From NCBI GenBank assembly GCA_030268105.1, contig BSDZ01000017.1:1426001-1490000 (forward strand): 64,000 bases of DNA. The letters are read 5' to 3'. The notes beneath the pieces are model-generated. The model did no database searches. It had not been told where the DNA came from and worked only from the letters and a program-made list of their open reading frames with translations. The translations under genes and the position numbers were made by a program. The stretch is from Volvox africanus (taxonomy: Eukaryota > Chlorophyta > Chlorophyceae > Chlamydomonadales > Volvocaceae). Positions 1,805 through 54,100 of the stretch are shown piece by piece (the first letter of the stretch is position 1; every line of letters starts with the position of its first letter).

Positions 1805-3564
1805 ATGACAGTTTCTGACCTAGGAGAACTCATAGGCTTTCTGGAGGACTCACGTGATGAGGTATGGAAGTGGGTTAACGTGCAACGATGATGCCTATAG
1901 ATGCAATCTTCATCACATGAGGTTTGGCGGCGCAGGTTCGGGCGATGTCTGCAGAGATAGTGGCCGGCTTGACTGCCAATGCGGAAGGCTTGGAAAAGTT
2001 AAAATGTGTACACCAACCACTCATCACTAAGCTCCTCCAATGCGTGGTACTTGGGGGAGACGCTGTAAGGAAGGCGCTGGTTGCGCTTGTAAATCTTTCC
2101 CACGACCCGGCCGTTGTGGAAATGCTTCTAAATTCGAACGTCATCAATCGAGTGATGGAATTCATCCGCGATCGCACTACCCCGCACGTTGACTTGATGG
2201 TCAGTTGACGGTTAAGTACTTCATTGTTTATAACTTCTTTGGCCCTTTTGACCCCTGGGACGTCAGTGGTGGGTTACCGATGCGTTTCGCGTCGCAAATC
2301 CCGCATAATCGCCGTTTTCAAGGATGTCTTGATGCCTTGAAGATCAAGAACCGCATTTTGCAATTGTAGGTAAAAGTCTGTCATTTACCATACCGTTTCG
2401 CATTTTCTAATCCGGAAGCTTAACTCCCTTCCAATTTATCCTGGTTGGGTTGCTGCAGACGAGCTTACTGGCAAACATCACTATCAGTGAACGAGGCAGC
2501 ATGGAACTGCTTCAACTTGGGAAAGGCAGCATGGAGGGCCAACACATGTGGGTCGCCATAGCAGCAGGATGGGCTCTACGTAGAACGGGATTGTGCTGGA
2601 CCAGCATACTGCACGGGCGCGCTCGTGAAGAAAGATACGGGGCTAATTACTGTGACAGCGTCATGTCACAGCCTTAGTGTCGCGCGCTGTTTGCATGCCT
2701 CGAAGAGCCATGAGCCTTTGCCTCAGTTCGCATTGACACGGCCTCGGATGGGCACCGCCCAGCCACCACAAAACACAGAGACTTAAAAAACACAAAACGT
2801 AGAGACTTAATCCAGACATTTATTCTCGAACTGCTTCCGCAGACCTTCTTGCAGCGCATCATCTCATTGCTCACCCAGCCGGACAGCTGATTCTCTATGA
2901 GTCGGTCACCCGGCACCTCATTCCGATGCTGATCCTTCACCGAGCCTAGTGATAAGTTTTGCATTAGTTGCCCCCAAACCCACAGGTCTGTGCTGCTGAA
3001 GAAGTTTGTGATAACGGGCATCACGAACCGCCCCGGTGGCGACGATGACCTGTACGAGCATGTTGCGTCCGTACTCACGAATGTGACGCGGCTGCGAGAG
3101 GCGCGGCTGTTGCTGCTGCAGCCCGGTCGGGAACTGCTGCTGGCGCTGGTGCCGCAGCTGCACTCGTCGAACGCGCTGCGGCGAGTGGGAGCTGCCGGCG
3201 CCCTCAAAAACTGCATCATGTCTGCGGAGGTGATGACCCACCGGCGCTATGGCGAACCGAGGGGATATATTTCGGTTTCAGGGGATCAGGGTTTCCGTAC
3301 TTGCGTTGGTTTGGACCGATCCTCTTAGAGCATTATGACAACTTGTACTCTTTCCGGATGAAAATGGCTGATGAAATGTCCGCAGGATGATGGCACCCTC
3401 GACTGCCTGTTGGAAGATCGGACCGTACTGACCCACATGCTTCGATGCATCAATGGCCAAGCACCATTGGAGAAGGAGGACACGTGAGTCCATTCCCACT
3501 ATACACCATCGCCTTGCCGCAGTCGTGACCCCTTCAGCTGCAGCAGCACCAGCAACAACAACAA

Positions 3565-3596
<32 letters not shown>

Positions 3597-3627
3597 CCAG
3601 CAACAACAACAGCAACAACAACAGCAA

Positions 3628-3659
<32 letters not shown>

Positions 3660-4823
3660 ACAACAGCAACAACAGCAACAACAGCAACAACAGCAGCACT
3701 ACTACCAAACACTAACACCAAACACCAACACCACCAAACATCACCAGCAGTGGCAAAAGTATCTTCTTATATTGTACCGCATGAAACACAGTACTCAAGT
3801 AGTATGTAGTATCAGATCGATATATTTTGGGCTCTGCATTAAGAATGCGTCGTAAGATTCCTGGCCATTCGGGTTCTCCGTCATACCTTGTTATATCTGG
3901 AAATATGTAAACATCGCGAAGTTGGATGCCATCGAGCGGAATCCTGGGCGGCCGTGCTCAGCCTTCCAAAGGAACCTTCCCTCTGCCGCCACCGCCGCCA
4001 CGCTCCTGGCCCATGCATGGCCCGTCCTTTCTACGCCCTGTGTGTTCACAGGTTTAGTCGTGAAAGCGATGCTGTCCCATCCTCTGTCATGTCCATCAGG
4101 GTGCGGGAGCGCATAGCGGAGGCGATTCTGGTGTTGGCGGGCACGGACAAGGGCCGGGACGCGCTTTGGGAAGCGGGCGCTCCTGAGGCATTGCGCAAAG
4201 GGTGAGCGTAGGTTAGGGAGAAGGAGCCGCCCTTCAGGGAGGGTCATCACGGCCTTTTTCCATGCATCACACAGCACCCCTTTGCGGAGTGAGGAGCTCC
4301 CACGGCCGGGCATGCGTGCCTCTTTTTAAAAAAGAGGTTCCTTTGAGATACCAATTGTGTCCTCGATTTACCAACTGCGCAAACATCGTGTTGGGGGGAA
4401 AGGCCGGCATCTTAGGTCCTAGTGTACTCTATCTTCACTTGGGGATTGCGCTCGTGTTTGTTGTACGTGTTATGTATTGTATGTGTTATAATCCTTAATT
4501 TCATATTGTATGTTGTGTCTGGCTATGTTCATATGATACAATGCCGTTTGTATTCAGCCATTATGCGGTTATGGGGTCTATCTGTGCGTGCGTCCTCTGC
4601 ACATTTCAGGTACGAGGACGAGCAGCACCCTGGCGTGTGTTTGGCGATGGAGCGCACCGCAGAGATCTTTCTGTCGCACAGCACTATTGACAGCGGTCTC
4701 ACGCCGGGCGTATTGGGCTTGGCGTCCTCTGCTAAGCAGCAGCAGCGGCAAGAACTAGCACAAGAGCAAGGAGAAGGGGAAGGAGAAGGACAGGAACAAG
4801 AGGGACGAGGAGGTCTGCATTAG
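1805..4823 (+). CDS. HGH1: HGH1-like armadillo-repeat protein (FAM203 family)
   Basis: Seven exons join in phase: 1805-1861, 1936-2199, 2459-2547, 2986-3229, 3386-3483, 4100-4201 and 4610-4823, giving about 355 residues, the normal size of the family. The start ATG at 1805 opens MTVSDLGELIGFLEDS, matching where plant HGH1 proteins begin. Family landmarks follow in order: VRAMSAEIVAGLT, KALVALVNLS (armadillo helix), SLLANIT, LYEHVASVLTN, then RVGAAGALKNC and the C-terminal GYEDEQHPGVCLAMERTAE segment. HGH1 is known in yeast as a cytosolic cofactor that helps the chaperonin TRiC/CCT fold elongation factor eEF2; that role is inferred here from homology. The tail after residue ~330 is a Q/E/G-rich low-complexity stretch. 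Intron 5 carries a CAA/CAG tract. All introns are GT-AG. Confidence 0.93.
3538..3701 (+). repeat. CAA/CAG trinucleotide tract in HGH1 intron 5
   Basis: About 160 bases of nearly pure CAR triplets (CAA and CAG mixed) lie within the intron between exons 5 and 6 of the HGH1-like gene. It creates long poly-Thr/Ala, poly-Val or poly-Leu reading frames on either strand that are artefacts. Confidence 0.95.
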
Positions 4824-40338: not shown

Positions 40339-43300
40339 ATGCACGGTTGGATTTCGCACGCTATCCGGTTCAAAAGACTGCCAGCATGCCCTTTTCATTA
40401 TAAATTACCTTTCACTTGTCTGAACCATGCTAAGGTTACATCACAACAGATGGGGATTTGGTTTCCCCTCTTTGAAGCGATGCTCCCTAACACCTGCCGA
40501 GCTACATCCAGACTGGCCTCGCCGGATCCGGCTTACGGGTTCGGGCCCATCCCTCAGCTGCCCACACGGCGCGTTGTCGTGACCGGGATTGGTCTTGTCA
40601 CCCCCCTCGGAGTAGGTGTGAGAGAGACGTGGCGGCGGCTACTGGCAGGCGAGTCGGGTCTGAGACAACTGCAGGAGGTGGATTTTCCGGAGGTAAGAAA
40701 GGGCCATGTGTTTGTAAAGTCTTAATCACATCATAATCGCACAACAGCGAGCATTGGTGCTACAGCGATATCCCACCCGCCCGTCACCATTTGCGATGGG
40801 CGGGTGGGATATCCGATATCGTTTGAACGGTAATTGCAAGAGCGATATGGGGAGGTCACGGGGCTAGGTGAGCACCGCTATGGTGAAGGAGCTAAGAGAA
40901 CCTTGACCCAACCTCTCAACTCAAGGTTTGGGCTAGGCCTGGCCTCAGTATCGGTCATGTGCCATTCCACAGCACTGACAGCTGCCTCCCTCTTACTTAC
41001 GTTCACGCTCGCCGTCATCCTTTACCTTCCCTGCACACTAGCCGATGCCGTTTTTCATCCCGCGCAGTGAAGAAGATCAATTAGCTGGCCCATCAGCTTC
41101 CTTTTCCTTTAGCTCATGCCTTCTTGACCCGTCATCGGAATTCCCCCCTCCGATCGTGCTCACTTCACCTCATTTGACTGCCCCATTTGACCCTGCCCAA
41201 TTCACCTGATCTTGATCCTAATCCTGATCTTGACGTTACAGTCGCAACGATCTGCGCTAGGGTCCTTACCGTGCCGCGTGGCGGGCCTCGTTCCCGAAAT
41301 CCAGCTGGAAGAGGCATGTAACCGTATGGGACTTGTAGAGGTGAGGGAACTCGAGTGTGCCGTGTGGATGAGACAAGAGACGGAAGACGGAGCCGAGCGC
41401 GCATGGCAGGACCTCGACGCGGCGGATCTGTCAAAGGCTTTTGCTTAGGGTTTTGCACTTGCAGGCGGTTAAGGGCGGTGAAGGGCGGTTACGGGCGGTT
41501 GCGATTCAGGGTGAGCTCCTGAGGAAGAGCCCTATCCAAGCACAAAATGAAAGGTCCAGCACGCATAGATTCGCCGTGCTTTTGGGGCCCTTTTCTGGGG
41601 CCTGCAACGGTGCCTTCCCAACGCCTCTACGGCAGGATGTTCGTCGATCGTCACGCTTCATGGTCATGGCGTTGGTAGCGGCGGAGGAGGCCCTCGCGGA
41701 TGCCCGCTGGCGCAAGGGGGATGTGGATGTGCATTTGCCAGACGGGGGCGTGCGCCGTCGTCGCGTGACGGGTGTAGTGGCGGGAAATGGCATGAGCTGC
41801 ACCACGGAGGTGGCGGAGGCAGGAGCTCTGGTGTGTGAGGGACGCGGCCGTCGCGTGTCTCCATTCTTCGTGCCCCGCATCTTGCCCAACATGGCTGCGG
41901 GGGCGATCAGCATCCGGTGCGATGGGGCCACGGGATCGTAGGCGGTCAGGAGTCAGCATCCTGTGCGGGGGCGGGTGGTGAGAGCAGGCCAGGCAACAGG
42001 GGTGTTTCGTCTGCTGTGACGTCATAGACTCTAGTCTATGCGGGGCGGGGCGGGGCACCACATGCGAGATCCATGCCACCACATGCGAGATCCACAGCTG
42101 CCGTTGATAGCGATTGCGAAAGGTAGTGAAAGGCCGACGGATCCACGAGGGGAGTGCAGGTAGGTCTGTTGTGCGGGGTGCCAGGTCAAAAGGGCTGCGA
42201 CCATTTAGGGTGTGATCACAGACAGCTGATGTTTTTCTCTTGTATGCCTGACAATCGGTTTGCCCTTCAAGATGGTCACCAAGGTACAGAGGCGAGCTAT
42301 TTGTCGTATATCGCTTATTTCAGGTCGTGTGTAATAATTGTGCATTACGTGTATCGATTATCACTGAAACGCTCACCTCTTTACCGTCGACCGACAACTC
42401 CATCGAGCGAATACCCCCATCCCACCCGGCTGGGAGTTCCTCTCGCTCACGGCGTTCCGTTCACTCCATCGCCCAACCCACGGCCGGTTGCTACTGCAGA
42501 CACGGGCTCCATGGTCCCAACCTAGCTCCCTCCACCGCTTGTGCAACGGGGGGCCACGCAGTGGGAGATGCCTTCCGGATTATCCAGCGCGGCGAAGCGG
42601 ACGTTATGGTGAGGGGGCGGAAGGAACGGCGCCACTTGCTAAGAAGAAGAGAACGACTCAGTACGAGCCACCAGCGGGCGCAGAAGAGAGGGTGCCTAAA
42701 AGGGACGACGACCAGGGAGCCCTCACCTGAGGCGGGCAGGAAGCGAGATGTTGAGGGCTTTCGTGCACACCCTTATCCTTCTCATGTGGTTAAGTTCCTT
42801 TGTTGTTTTGAGCCCGCGGCATGGCGGTGGCTGCGGATCGCCTTTCTTGCTGCACTATGCCACGCTGCACTGCGCTGCCCGCCGCTGTTACCAATCCATA
42901 ACCCATGCAGGTCGCTGGCGCATCCGAGGCCTGTGTGGATGCGATCAGCTTGGTGGGCTTCAGCCGCCTGAAGGCTCTGTCCACAGGTTTCAACGATGAG
43001 CCGGAAAGGGCGTCCAGGTGGGCGTCTCACGGGGCTGGTAGCACTGGTATAACCCAGGGACAGGGGTTAAAACCTTAGGCACAACAAACCTTAAAAATCA
43101 CTGAGGCCCGAGAACCCGTGGGATTATTACGAAATTACGATTTGTAAGAATAATGAGAAACATTTGCTGGTATTTCGTAACCTCATAACTCCTTTAGAAC
43201 CTTAGATAACTGCTCAAACCCAGTTATGAATGTGACTAGAGATAATAGACGAATGGGGAAGAAATTGGCTTATTAGGTTTAGGCTCTTGGGCGTATATTG

Positions 43301-46300
43301 GTAATAATTGTCATATATCTAGTGGAGCTGGAATTGGAGGGGTCTTAGAACCGTTACAGGCAAAACCGGTAATTATTGAAGATAATTGCTTTGTTGGGGC
43401 TAGTTCACAGATTGTAGAAGGAGTCGTTGTGGAAGATGGAGCGGTGATTAGCACTGGGGTTTTTATTGGTGCGGCAACAAAAATCATTAATCGTAATAAC
43501 GGCGATATTATTTCTGGTAGGATTCCGGCTTATTCAGTAGTTGTACCCGGAGTACTCCGTCTTCCAAAAAGGACTTGCCCAGGATCTATTGTGCGGTTAT
43601 TGTAAAGCAGGTTGATAAAAAGACCCGGGAAAAAACGAGTGTTAATGAATTGCTTAGGGATTAATTGTATGGCTATAGAACAGGTTCTAGAAACTCTTAC
43701 TAAATTAGTTAGTTTTAGGTCGATTACCCCTTGTAGCAGTGGGTCACTAGAATATATTGCAGAATTATTAACCAAGTCTGGTTTTTCTTGTGATATTCAA
43801 GTTTTTGGGGAAAAAGAAGAAAAAATAACTACCAATTTATATGCACGATATGGAAATGGTAGCCCTAATATATGTTTTGCCGGTCATATAGATGTTGTAC
43901 CACCGCTGAATGAAAACTTAGGGGAGTATAGCCCTTTTGAGTTAAAAGTTATAGGGGAAAAAGTATATGGCCGCGGCACTGTTGATATGAAAGGTGCAAT
44001 TGCTTGCGGTATAGTATCAGCTTTAAATTATTTAAAAATTCACCCAGAACCAATTGGATCTATCAGGTTTTTGTCAACTAGTGATGAAGAAGGTTAAACA
44101 AACTAATAAAGAGCCACCCGGTTGATGGTACAAAGCACTATCTAGAAATATTACATCTTGCCGCCGTCAATAATTAGAGTGAAGTTGAAGCAGCTATAGC
44201 AGCTTTGATGGAAAGCAGGATCACTCCTAATATAGAGAAGGTTAAAGATTTATTATACATCAAATCGCAAGGTAAAGCTGCAGTTTATGTTGACCAACCA
44301 ATAGTGGAGCAATACGATTCCTTGCTTGAACTGGTAGCGTAGAGGTGTAGGACATGAGTAATAGTTTAACTGGTATCTTAATTGTTAATTGATGATCCCT
44401 ACTTATCATGCTACACCTAACCTTTAAATCCAAATAACTCAGATTTTTTTCAGCCAGTCACGTTCTACAGTCCACAAACTAATAAAGAGCTTTCCAAAGC
44501 TGCCGGATGGCTCCAGGGACGGTTCCAGGAATCAGTTTAGTGCGCGTTTATTGATGATGTCAATTGCGGAAGAGGTTCGAAGGGTGTGGTGGTGTCCATT
44601 ATGTGAGTCCCGGAGGCTGGCCCCTGGCGATTGCTTCGTCAGGCTTCATACGTGATGGGCCGTAGGCGCCCTCCTGGTCGCGGCGGAAAACGTTGCTTGG
44701 ATGTCTCATTACGTATTTTGAAAGGAGGTCGGATCTGAGCTATAATCTCATGGCTCTGCATCAAAAGGAAGCAGGCACTCGTCCCCATCACATGCTCAAA
44801 TGCCAGCGTATAGCACGCGTATGTGGGCCCATGGGGTGTACTGTTGTATGGCTTGTATATCTGCTCCCCATAGCCCATACCACCAGCAGACAACCGGTGC
44901 TACCCATTCTATATTCTTACAGAGTATTTCCTAGGTTTTTTCACAATATGCGCTTGTGCCAGTAGACCGCAGCTTACAAGCGGTGCAGTGCCAGTAGGCC
45001 ACTACAAGCACAGCACCGGTGAGTGGGTGCCGCACCATTTGGTGGTCGCCACGGCGTATTTGAGTACGGGAAGTTTTTCTTCTCCATCGTGTATCATCTT
45101 TAGCACATATTTATAAGGCGCATGCTCTGGGCGTCACTCAGACGTTGGCGCCATTGATGATTTTGACTATAACGAGCATTTGGCCGTGCTGAGTGTCTTT
45201 CAATAATCGGGATGCCTATCTTACTAGGCATCCCCAACGTTACTGTACCTTACTGCCCCGCCCACGCGATCTGTGCCCGCGCCAGGGCAGGCCATTCGAC
45301 GCGGCCCGCGACGGCTTCGTGATGGGTGAGGGTGCAGGCATGCTTGTGCTGGAGGAGCTGGAACACGCTTTGGCAAGGGGCGCCAATATTTACGCAGAGG
45401 TACGCAGCGCGGGCCAGCAACAGCAGCCTTGCGGGACGGCTGTGTATCGGGGCTTTCAGGGCTTCCGATTGAGCATGGGCTCAATGTGTCTATGTGTCGC
45501 CCCGGCCTCAATTATTGCGACTAGCTCCGTTGTTTCCCTGTTCCCATCCTTGCCCCTGCCTCATCTTCTCCTCCTCCTCTGCCCTGTTGTCTGCCCATGT
45601 CCTGAGTGCCAGGTGCGCGGATATGGTATGTCCGGAGATGCTCATCACATCACGCATCCGCATCCAGATGGTCTTGGTGCTGTGCTGTGCATGCAGCGGG
45701 CGCTGGAAGGCTCGGGGCTGACAGCTCGTGACGTGGCCTACGTCAACGCACACGCCACGTCAACTCCGACAGGCATGGCGCACGGGGCCTGGGTTGGTTT
45801 TAATGGAGATCACTTGTACGCAACGCTCAATACGTTCGAGTTGTGACGGGAGGGAGGGCGGATTCTGGAACGAGCAGGAATGGACTGCAGACGGCAACCC
45901 AAACAGCTATGGAAATGACGCCTGACCTTTCCCACATCGTCTTGGTTTTCCTCGGGGCGCTGCTTTCTGTATAAGAAAGGCTTTCCCATAACGCAGCAAA
46001 GCTCAGTCAATGGCTTCGATTCGGGTGCGTGGGGTTTGTAGGCTGAAAGGATGACTGTAGCTGGGCTGTTGGGATGGCTGTTGCAACCAATTGAAACACG
46101 CTGCAGCTCTACCGGAATGTCGCGTACATGTACAACCAGCAAGCACATACTGCTTTGTCCGCTCCTTGTTTCATATCTTCGCGAAAATGGAAACAAAACT
46201 TTCCCTGTCCTGCACCATGCATTGCTCGCTCATCCCAGGGGATGCAATTGAACAAGCCGCCATGTTATCCGTCTTTAGAAGTGGCGTTGCTGCCGCCACC

Positions 46301-51100: not shown

Positions 51101-54100
51101 GGGCTTTTGTAGGAGGGGCTTCAATCCCCGCGGACCCCAGCGTGGTGATCTTCCGGCCTCAGGTTATCTGTCGCCCCATCTCATCTGTCGCTCCATCACC
51201 CCGCAGCGTCTCCAAGCCGCAGTGTCCAACTACCTGGGTTTGTTGATGGCGTCTCGCAATTTGGACTTCTTCACGTCCTTCTATCGGTACCTCATTCAGC
51301 TGCTACCTGCCGCTGTGGTGGCGCCCTTGTTCTTCCAAGTGAGCACCCCGGAACCCATCCACCTCGCCCGGTCGTGTGGGCATGTGGGGAGTGGGGGTGG
51401 GGAGTGGGGATGGTGTCATTTGCAGTGCGATGACCCATAAGGACACACACACTCAGTTCGTATTTGATTGTTGTGATGTGTCCTTGCTGATGTGTCCTTG
51501 GTGGTGTTGTAGCATGTCGCTTTTTACACAACTTATAAACCCTTTCATTGCCATTTTGGCGTCAGCCCACATGTGTATGTCGTACGTGCAGGGCAAGATT
51601 GACTTCGGTGTGATCAACCAAAGCCAGTCCGCTTTCAACCACATATTGAGCGATGTCTCACTTGTCATCTACCAGGTACGACATCGCGACGTCCATCCGC
51701 CTAGCCGGCCTCTATCGGGTGATGACCTGCATGACGCAGCCGACCACACCGGGGGACCCGCTCCCTCCCCGTTGTAACTCCCTCCCGCCCACACCTCCCC
51801 CTCCCGCCCAGCATCTATAATGGTCAACCCTTGTCGTACACAGCTCAGCTTCGGCCTTCTGTGTCCGTTCTGGCTCTCCTCTTCCGGGCCCTCCTATTTC
51901 TATACCCACCAATCGGCCCACTGGACACACACACACCTTTATATATATAAACCCTACAGTATTTTTCGTTTATATATATATATATATATATAAACGAAAA
52001 ATACTGTAGGGTTATAATAAATGAATTACTCATTTTCCTAATTGACAAGATACCTAAATTGCATACATTAAAAAAATAAATTCAATGCTTTATTATAACC
52101 CTACTGTATTTTTCGTTCTGTTCTCTTATAAGACTTTGTTGTTTTGATGCTTGCATTCAAAACTCGATAATATTTTGACTAATTTCATCATTTTTCTTGG
52201 GATTTTACAACTAACAATTTACTATTTTACAGTTATAAATGGCGTTTTATTTCTTCAAGTTTTACATAGCGCATCTTAAATATCAAGAATTCTTTGGCAT
52301 TTCATATTATTTGCTTTTTTATATGTGCGTTTTTGATAGAGAAAAATCAGTATAACTATTAAATTCAAGCAAGTTTAAGCTCGATTACTCGATCATGCCC
52401 TGACAAATCTTTGGAAATGACGATTTCAGTAAATAGATGCTCTTTTAGCATGTTAATTAAGGCTTGAGATTGATTAAATCCAATTTCTAAAAATATTTCT
52501 TTAATCCAAAAATTATCTTTTTATAATTAATGAAACCATTCTTCTTGGCAAAAAGCGCCAATCCTGGCCAAAATAGTTGGGATAGGGTTATTTCTCCTGA
52601 TTTATTACGTCAGGAATATGGAAGAATAGTTAAAGACCATTAAATAGCAGTTCTGATGGCAAACCAACCTAATATACTTGCAGAACAGATTCTAAACCTA
52701 TATAAATAGGTTTGTAGGGGGATTTAAACTGAAAGGTTTTAGTTTAATTGAAAGGGAATTAAAATCATATACGCCACCAATTCTATTACAATATTTCATC
52801 CCAGAAAGGGATTATAATAGTGAGTTCAATTACATTTATAATAAAATCAGAATATAAGAATTAGGTTGACTATAAAGGCAATCATAAATAGAAATGTATT
52901 ATATAATATTTAATTCAAGTTTTACTTTGGGAATTGTTAAATTTTATGAATAAAATACTGGTTACCGGTTCTGCGAGAAAACAGATAATTGAATTCCGCT
53001 TCTTTGGTAATGCTGTATTCCAGATTCCATATCTTTTTCATTAACCTGTCTTCTTTAAGTGTTAATTCAGTTTTATATGTTTCTTCAAAATTTTTCTGCT
53101 GTGCTTCGTAATAACTTTTGTATTGGGTAGACGCTTATCAAATAGTTATTAATAATAAAATAAATCATAATTTAAAAACTACTAACGACTTAATTAACTA
53201 CCTAACAACTATTGCTCCGCAAAAGGTTATAATACAAACGCACCCTGAACGATGGGCGTATTCGTATCCTACTTTTATTTTTTTATTAATTTTAGACGGG
53301 GAAAGTAATTTGATAAAATTTCAAGGAAGTTTTCGATAATTAATCAGTATTGCTGGAATCAGTGTAAAGAATTATTTAATTCTTATATATATATATATAT
53401 ATATATACGTATGTTTGTATGTATGCAATAGCCCAAAACATGTAAAACTTGTGAAATTCAATTTGGGCAAAGAGTTTAAAAAAGATCAATCAACTAATAA
53501 TGAGGTTAAAGAAAGAATGATTTAAAAGGTAAGATTGCACGTTACCGGCTATATGAATCCGGACAAAAATGATCTACTCATCAAAGGAGTATTTATGTAT
53601 GTATGCATGCATGTATTATGTATTATGTATGTTATACATGTTTATGTTGATAATATATATAAGCACACACGAGCACTTCCGCCCGCCCGCTTTCACACGC
53701 GGGCACACAGATTGAGGCTCTCGCGGGGTTCAGCGCCGTGGTGGATCGTCTGGGTGAGTTCCAGGAGGCTATGACGGCCCGTCAGCAGCAGCAGGCTCGG
53801 CTTGCGGCAAGCGGGGAGGGAGAAGGCGTCGCTGCTGCGGCTGTTGTTGAGGGGAGCCAAAAGAACCAGGACTTCAGAACAGAGCCGGAGGCGCTACCCG
53901 GCATTCAGCTCCGATTCCTTAGGAGCCAAGCGGCGGGGGAGAGCAGTAGCGGCAACGAGCATGTCGGACCCATGGGTCAGCCGCTACTGCGAGTGCACGA
54001 CTTGACGGTGGTGACACCGCGAGGCAGCAACCTGCTGTTACGGGATCTCAACCTGGAGGTATGGGTTTGGATTTGGGGAGGAGGGCCGCGGAGTGGTGTG

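What the first reader, a model, noticed from the sequence alone, without database searches (positions are those of the whole stretch)
43282..44490. Bacterial dapD-dapE operon fragment and IS21 remnant inside an intron of an algal ketoacyl-ACP synthase gene
The end of DapD, four bases, then the start of DapE, then IS21 istA/istB remnants lie in intron 5 of the mtKAS gene. Gene order and spacing are bacterial, and composition is AT-rich against a GC-richer host. Known biology: green algae make lysine by the aminotransferase (DapL) route and should lack DapD and DapE. A Rickettsiales endosymbiont is the likely donor, since such bacteria live in volvocine algae and carry many IS elements; donor assignment is inference.
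Basis: partly seen in the sequence, partly recalled or inferred. Interest (0 to 1): 0.88.

Follow-up and report, generated by a model that had tools for sequence, protein, structure and literature searches.

The report
Volvox introns carry lost-symbiont DNA
An intron of a Volvox gene holds broken pieces of two lysine-synthesis genes from the intracellular bacterium Candidatus Megaira, apparently one of thousands of short scraps of such symbionts scattered through this alga's nuclear genome.

Summary
The core observation holds. Window 43282-44102 is an 88% nucleotide match to dapD (3' part)-dapE (5' part) of Ca. Megaira. It lies in intron 5 (43018-45290) of a mitochondrial-type KAS gene of Volvox africanus, and the deposited protein splices across it. 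A DapE tree groups it with Megaira, 100/100 support. It is dead: a frameshift in dapD, both genes truncated. The IS21 label was not confirmed.

The thing is bigger than reported. The same intron holds a further 48-bp Megaira piece, and an ABC-transporter intron about 8 kb downstream holds pieces 98% and 100% identical to Megaira. Searching the host genome with six Megaira stretches (91 kb) gave 202 matches (four of the six capped); a 10.4-kb Rickettsia control gave one, dapE itself at 65%. Extrapolation is rough: about 2,000-4,000 fragments.

Best reading: symbiont DNA scraps captured during DNA-break repair, decaying neutrally in introns. A 9-kb insert of this kind is published for V. carteri (PMC4324946) and Wolbachia 'fossils' are the animal parallel, so this is a new, heavy case of a known kind.

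The parts
43018..45290 (+). Intron 5 (2,273 bp, GT...AG) of the host mtKAS gene, which holds the insert
   Evidence: Deposited protein P0001 (VaNZ11_007101) mapped to 9 exons; boundaries read
43282..43664 (+). dapD remnant: C-terminal part, upstream part missing, 1-bp deletion relative to both Megaira genomes near 43556
   Evidence: TIGR00965 E 2e-45; 88% nt to L002/L003; 43662-43664 is the TAA that matches Megaira's dapD stop
43669..44095 (+). dapE remnant: N-terminal 142 codons from the ATG, then cut off (homology runs to 44102 with MegNEIS296)
   Evidence: dapE_proteo E 1.5e-34; 85-87% aa identity to Megaira; tree
44098..44114 (+). 17-bp direct repeat, copy 1, at the end of the dapE piece
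   Evidence: Exact copy at 44474; no other copy within 3 mismatches in the window
44117..44342 (+).
   Evidence: Five nameless metagenome proteins, 64-89% identity; IS21 not confirmed
44377..44475 (-). End of a transposase-type gene from a Megaira-like genome, antisense
   Evidence: 95% over 100 columns to the Erken MAG, L086; ORF, Pfam HTH_28 E 1e-5 and HTH_Tnp_1 E 1e-4
44474..44490 (+). 17-bp direct repeat, copy 2, last bases of the AT-rich block before host-like DNA
44882..44929 (-). 48-bp Megaira piece, reverse orientation, from a long ORF at about 156.4 kb of MegNEIS296
   Evidence: 92%, E 9e-10 against 1.2 Mb; ORF
51676..53710 (+). Second invaded intron (2,035 bp, GT...AG, boundaries by my reading) in an ABC-transporter gene; AT-rich island 51949-53640 at 27.6% GC
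   Evidence: Flanking exons give ABC_tran E 1e-8; boundaries and GC
52807..52975 (+). Megaira piece, 98.2% over 169 bp, about 48.3 kb of MegNEIS296 (end of one ORF and start of an epimerase-type ORF)
53142..53255 (+). Megaira piece, 100% over 114 bp, about 1067.5 kb of MegNEIS296

Best explanation
This is nuclear DNA of endosymbiont origin. Fragments of Ca. Megaira chromosomes entered the nucleus of a Volvox africanus ancestor and were joined into the host chromosome, sometimes several unrelated fragments at one place. In introns they were tolerated, and they are decaying as non-coding filler that is spliced out. The dapD-dapE piece has no lysine-pathway function. SHOWN: origin, intron position, truncation and frameshift, several pieces in one intron, a second invaded intron, and very many further sites in the same genome. 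INFERRED: entry by fragment capture during double-strand-break repair (end joining), by analogy with organelle DNA insertions; removal by splicing, from the deposited protein; more than one donor lineage or time of transfer, since identities run from about 70% to 100%; and that the donor symbiont is now absent, which I did not test.
For: 88% nt identity to two Megaira-type genomes with gene order kept, Rickettsia and others far lower; tree 100/100, 31 rows, 30 of the 80 loci fetched. Three pieces from unlinked Megaira places in one intron (two on MegNEIS296 at about 1013 kb and 156 kb, one found only in the Erken MAG), one of them reversed. A 340-bp micro-mosaic on C20 with 55-, 68- and 58-bp pieces from three Megaira places. 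Genome-wide: 202 matches from 91 kb of Megaira query against 1 for 10.4 kb of Rickettsia. Five of the six searches merged: 169 separate host segments on 40 contigs, 36-875 bp, median 109. No chance matches in two controls on the window. PacBio 197x and Illumina 166x assembly with bacterial-like contigs removed (passages of PMC10291315).
Against: No reads were available, so no junction was checked on a single molecule. Junctions have no clear repair signature; the only repeat is the 17-bp pair, which could have other causes. Much of the AT-rich sequence (43040-43281, 44103-44376, most of 51949-53640) matches neither Megaira genome and is unexplained. The excess of amino-acid-changing differences on the host branch (13:13 against 21:7 synonymous:non-synonymous) is not significant (Fisher p 0.09). 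I could not read the sequence around the other sites, so 'introns' is shown for two places only.
Confidence: 0.9

Rival explanations
1. Assembly chimera or contamination: reads of a Megaira living in the culture were joined into algal contigs.
For: Some pieces are 98-100% identical to a present-day Megaira, and the deposited study does not mention Rickettsia in its main text (0 occurrences), so an unnoticed infection is possible.
Against: Pieces are tiny (36-875 bp), on about 40 multi-gene contigs, several from different donor places in one intron, with divergence of 2-30% and a frameshift; contigs matching bacterial DNA were removed and coverage was about 197x long-read. A comparable V. carteri insert was confirmed by direct sequencing of PCR products (passages).
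Confidence: 0.04
2. A domesticated, functional transfer: the dapD/dapE sequence or its transcript does something for the alga.
For: The dapE frame stays open over 163 codons stop to stop.
Against: dapD is frameshifted and lacks its first half, dapE ends at about codon 142; the protein model skips the block. The host has DapL-like exons.
Confidence: 0.02
3. Inheritance from the mitochondrial or another old alphaproteobacterial ancestor, or from a Rickettsiales other than Megaira.
For: The family is alphaproteobacterial.
Against: Other loci are at most 57% identical in protein against 85-87%; the orthologous Rickettsia region matches only dapE at 65%; tree 100/100 with Megaira.
Confidence: 0.03

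Closest known systems
Rickettsial (hydra group = Ca. Megaira) insert of about 9 kb in the Volvox carteri EVE nuclear genome (Kawafune et al. 2015, PMC4324946; passages seen)
   Same: Same donor genus, related host, truncated genes (16S, murB, ddlB, ftsQ) mixed with host repeats, endosymbiont lost in the host strain; authors infer at least two rickettsial lineages.
   Different: Other species, other genes, and here very many dispersed short pieces. Their S1 Table lists further V. carteri hits that I could not see, so V. carteri may be alike.
Wolbachia genomic fossils: Dictyocaulus viviparus (PMC4046930; abstract and part of the results) and nuclear Wolbachia transfers in filarial worms (PMC12693587; abstract)
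   Same: Rickettsiales symbiont DNA in short, disabled nuclear fragments, used as a record of past infection and of several donor lineages.
   Different: Animal hosts; here the host is a non-phagotrophic green alga and the donor is Megaira. The D. viviparus set is about 1 Mb in 193 contigs; the figure here is an extrapolation.
NUMTs, NUPTs and mosaic organelle insertions (PMC6215612; abstract)
   Same: Single or composite cytoplasmic DNA fragments joined into nuclear chromosomes; end joining is the accepted route.
   Different: The donor is a facultative bacterial symbiont, not an organelle; end-joining signatures were not shown here.

Membership tests
Nuclear insertion of endosymbiont DNA (as nuclear Wolbachia transfers) | Donor sequence identified to a symbiont lineage by similarity and tree | tested here: met
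Nuclear insertion of endosymbiont DNA (as nuclear Wolbachia transfers) | Joined to undoubted host nuclear sequence in one contig | tested here: met
   Inside an intron of a spliced KAS gene on a 3.6-Mb contig
Nuclear insertion of endosymbiont DNA (as nuclear Wolbachia transfers) | Disabled genes, no selection on coding function | tested here: met
   Truncations and a frameshift; the substitution pattern alone is not significant
Nuclear insertion of endosymbiont DNA (as nuclear Wolbachia transfers) | Junctions supported by single reads or PCR | not testable with these tools
   No reads held
End-joining capture (as NUMTs) | Microhomology or small filler at junctions | tested here: inconclusive
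   No clear microhomology on the left; a short ACAAA at the right edge shared with MegNEIS296; a 17-bp direct repeat around the next block
End-joining capture (as NUMTs) | Several unlinked donor fragments in one insertion | tested here: met
   KAS intron and C20 micro-mosaic; 10 of 130 clusters in the genome sample hold more than one segment
   No IS21 match; an intact-looking IstB of Megaira does score (PF01695 E 2e-55), so the library can see the family

The most novel reading that the evidence does not exclude
The V. africanus nucleus is peppered with thousands of micro-fragments, often composite, from at least two Megaira lineages or times of infection (identities of one Megaira region to host copies run both 80-87% and 94-100%), so that short stretches of symbiont DNA supply intron sequence throughout the genome; and Megaira scraps have been multiplied inside a tandem array of about 11-kb units on two contigs. 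Such a genome would be a readable fossil record of repeated, lost infections in a non-phagotrophic multicellular alga.
Probability: 0.6. Interest if true: 0.72.

Novelty: new member of a known kind. Interest (0 to 1): 0.6.

Why it matters
If the density holds, Volvox would be a plant-lineage counterpart of the Wolbachia fossils in worms: past infections could be dated and assigned from an apparently symbiont-free culture, and the pieces would show how bacterial DNA reaches the nucleus of a cell that does not eat bacteria. It also makes a direct test possible of whether introns grow by capturing cytoplasmic DNA, and it warns that Megaira screening of algal genomes by similarity can report inserts in place of living symbionts.

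Tried and rejected
IS21 identity of 44178-44376: not supported; five nameless relatives only (62). rRNA as the reason for the 98-100% matches: rejected, no Rfam match in the window or in the two Megaira stretches. The ~11-kb array as rDNA: not tested; the search for eukaryotic SSU rRNA did not complete. The repeated Megaira piece itself is protein-coding (end of one ORF and start of the next), not rRNA: the Rfam search of that stretch found only a tRNA elsewhere. Fragments of the host genome around the other sites: could not be fetched. The 52092-52176 match (75%, E 1e-7) is left out of the parts: AT-rich and partly a sequence repeated locally. Search for full-length DapD/DapE elsewhere in the host by family model: not done; the DapD fragment as protein found only itself and the DNA found one more 55-bp copy. 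Genome match counts are lower bounds in four searches (40 candidates scored of 55, 81, 49, 74); two Megaira stretches (L090, L138) were chosen because they match the window, the other four arbitrarily; multi-copy Megaira genes raise site counts; two Megaira stretches share a repeat and hit the same places (merged). Structure prediction was not used.
Full report
WHAT WAS CHECKED. The dapD-dapE part is right. NCBIfam places 43249-43602 in dapD (TIGR00965, E 2e-45, profile 144-237 of 271) and 43606-44094 in dapE (PRK13009 E 1.2e-37). A scan of one genome per prokaryote species with the DapE frame (322 relatives, best 80 kept) puts two Megaira-type genomes first, at 85% and 87% over all 163 residues: Ca. 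Megaira of Mesostigma viride (MegNEIS296, L002) and an Erken lake MAG (L003). The next loci, mostly Rickettsiaceae, reach at most 57%. In DNA the block 43282-44095 is 88% identical to both, in one piece, running from dapD across the TAA-4 bases-ATG joint into dapE. A tree of 31 DapE rows (30 of the 80 loci, chosen by me, plus the window) unites the window with these two at 100/100.

THE HOST AND THE GENE. The window lies on C17 of a 141.0-Mb genome. The contig length 3,611,764 is that of the contig listed for the protein VaNZ11_007101 of Volvox africanus, and PMC10291315 describes V. africanus TH strain 1101-NZ-11 with 141.0 Mbp and 129 contigs (passages); 126 contigs are held here. So the host is this strain (inference from matching numbers). 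The deposited protein maps to nine exons between 40339 and 47289 and crosses the insert as RASR|PFDAAR; the intron is 43018-45290 with GT...AG ends.

THE INSERT IS DEAD. dapD lacks its first part and has one base deleted against both Megaira genomes; dapE stops after about 142 codons. Window-only changes in dapE are 13 synonymous and 13 not, against 7:4 and 14:3 on the two Megaira branches; the direction fits loss of selection but is not significant (Fisher p 0.09).

WHAT ELSE IS IN THE INTRON. 44377-44475 is 95% identical to the Erken MAG, antisense to the end of an ORF with HTH_28 (E 1e-5) and weak HTH_Tnp_1 matches. 44882-44929 is 92% identical over 48 bp, reversed, to a long ORF at about 156.4 kb of MegNEIS296. 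A 17-bp direct repeat sits at 44098 and 44474, at the ends of two Megaira blocks.

A SECOND INTRON. A blast of the whole window against 1.2 Mb of MegNEIS296 gave five matches; reversed and Markov-scrambled Megaira gave none. Two lie in an island of 27.6% GC at 51949-53640: 52807-52975 (98.2%) and 53142-53255 (100%). The island is in a 2,035-bp intron of an ABC-transporter gene (flanking exons ABC_tran E 1e-8; boundaries by my reading). The fifth match, 52092-52176 at 75%, I do not count.

THE WHOLE GENOME. I searched the host with six Megaira stretches. Matches at E<=1e-3: L090 45, L120 42, L138 43, L100 41 (20 kb each, only 40 candidates scored of 55, 81, 49, 74), L125 8 (5 kb, 8 of 8 scored), L110 23 (6 kb, 22 of 22 scored). 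Together 202 in 91 kb. The syntenic 10.4 kb of Rickettsia RiCimp gave one match, this dapE at 65%. Merging the first five searches named (179 rows; one search came later and is not in this merge) leaves 169 host segments on 40 contigs, 36-875 bp, median 109. Best identities: 23 at 95-100%, 47 at 90-94%, 56 at 85-89%, 23 at 80-84%, 20 below 80%. Some low-identity rows may be conserved genes and not inserts. Extrapolating to the 1.448-Mb chromosome gives about 2,060 from three arbitrary stretches with arrays removed, two of them capped, and about 4,080 fragments and 0.56 Mb from the two uncapped stretches (31 matches, 4,246 bases, 11 kb; 25 of 31 at 80% or more). These are rough.

MOSAICS AND DONORS. 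Ten of 130 clusters (array removed) hold more than one segment; those on C3, C13 and C36 join pieces from different Megaira stretches and orientations. On C20 three pieces of 55, 68 and 58 bp from three Megaira places sit within 340 bp. One Megaira region (L090 8-17 kb) has host copies at both 80-87% and 94-100%. That suggests more than one donor or time, though recent exchange among Megaira strains could blur it.

HOW IT MOST LIKELY AROSE. Infected ancestors released symbiont DNA; fragments reached the nucleus and were joined in at breaks, as for organelle DNA, where composite insertions show end joining (abstract of PMC6215612). Introns hide them. Entry, repair route and loss of the symbiont are inferred.

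WHAT IS KNOWN. PMC4324946 reports a PCR-confirmed ~9-kb rickettsial insert in V. carteri EVE and infers at least two rickettsial invasions (passages); PMC9098888 cites it as partial inserts of Megaira genomes (passage). Wolbachia fossils in nematodes are the animal counterpart. My searches (open-licence PMC only) listed no report on V. africanus or on such numbers; the S1 Table of PMC4324946 was not seen.

VERDICT. Real, correctly placed, donor refined to Megaira; IS21 label unconfirmed; not functional; a heavy new example of a known phenomenon.

Noticed in passing
G000:C36 (14 copies) and C69 (4 copies), e.g. C36:97202-97683: A 484-bp Megaira piece (88%, end of one ORF and start of the next) recurs at mostly 11.1-11.7-kb spacing; a 54-bp Megaira piece recurs nine times on C36 at similar spacing. 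Symbiont DNA inside a tandem array whose unit I could not identify.
   Followed up: partly
L083:1501-1838 (G000:C20:1510484-1510821): Micro-mosaic of 55-, 68- and 58-bp Megaira pieces; the first is the same dapD/dapE joint as in the window, 93% identical to it.
   Followed up: partly
window 51950-52013: Perfect palindrome with 32-bp arms around a TA run at the left edge of the AT-rich island; part of the arm recurs at 52099.
   Followed up: partly
window 44098-44114 and 44474-44490: Exact 17-bp direct repeat bracketing the transposase-type block; origin unknown.
   Followed up: partly
L090:1051-2650 (MegNEIS296 about 41-42.7 kb): This short Megaira stretch alone has about 24 of the 45 host matches, many at 76-80%; probably a multi-copy Megaira gene family, not checked.
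   Followed up: no
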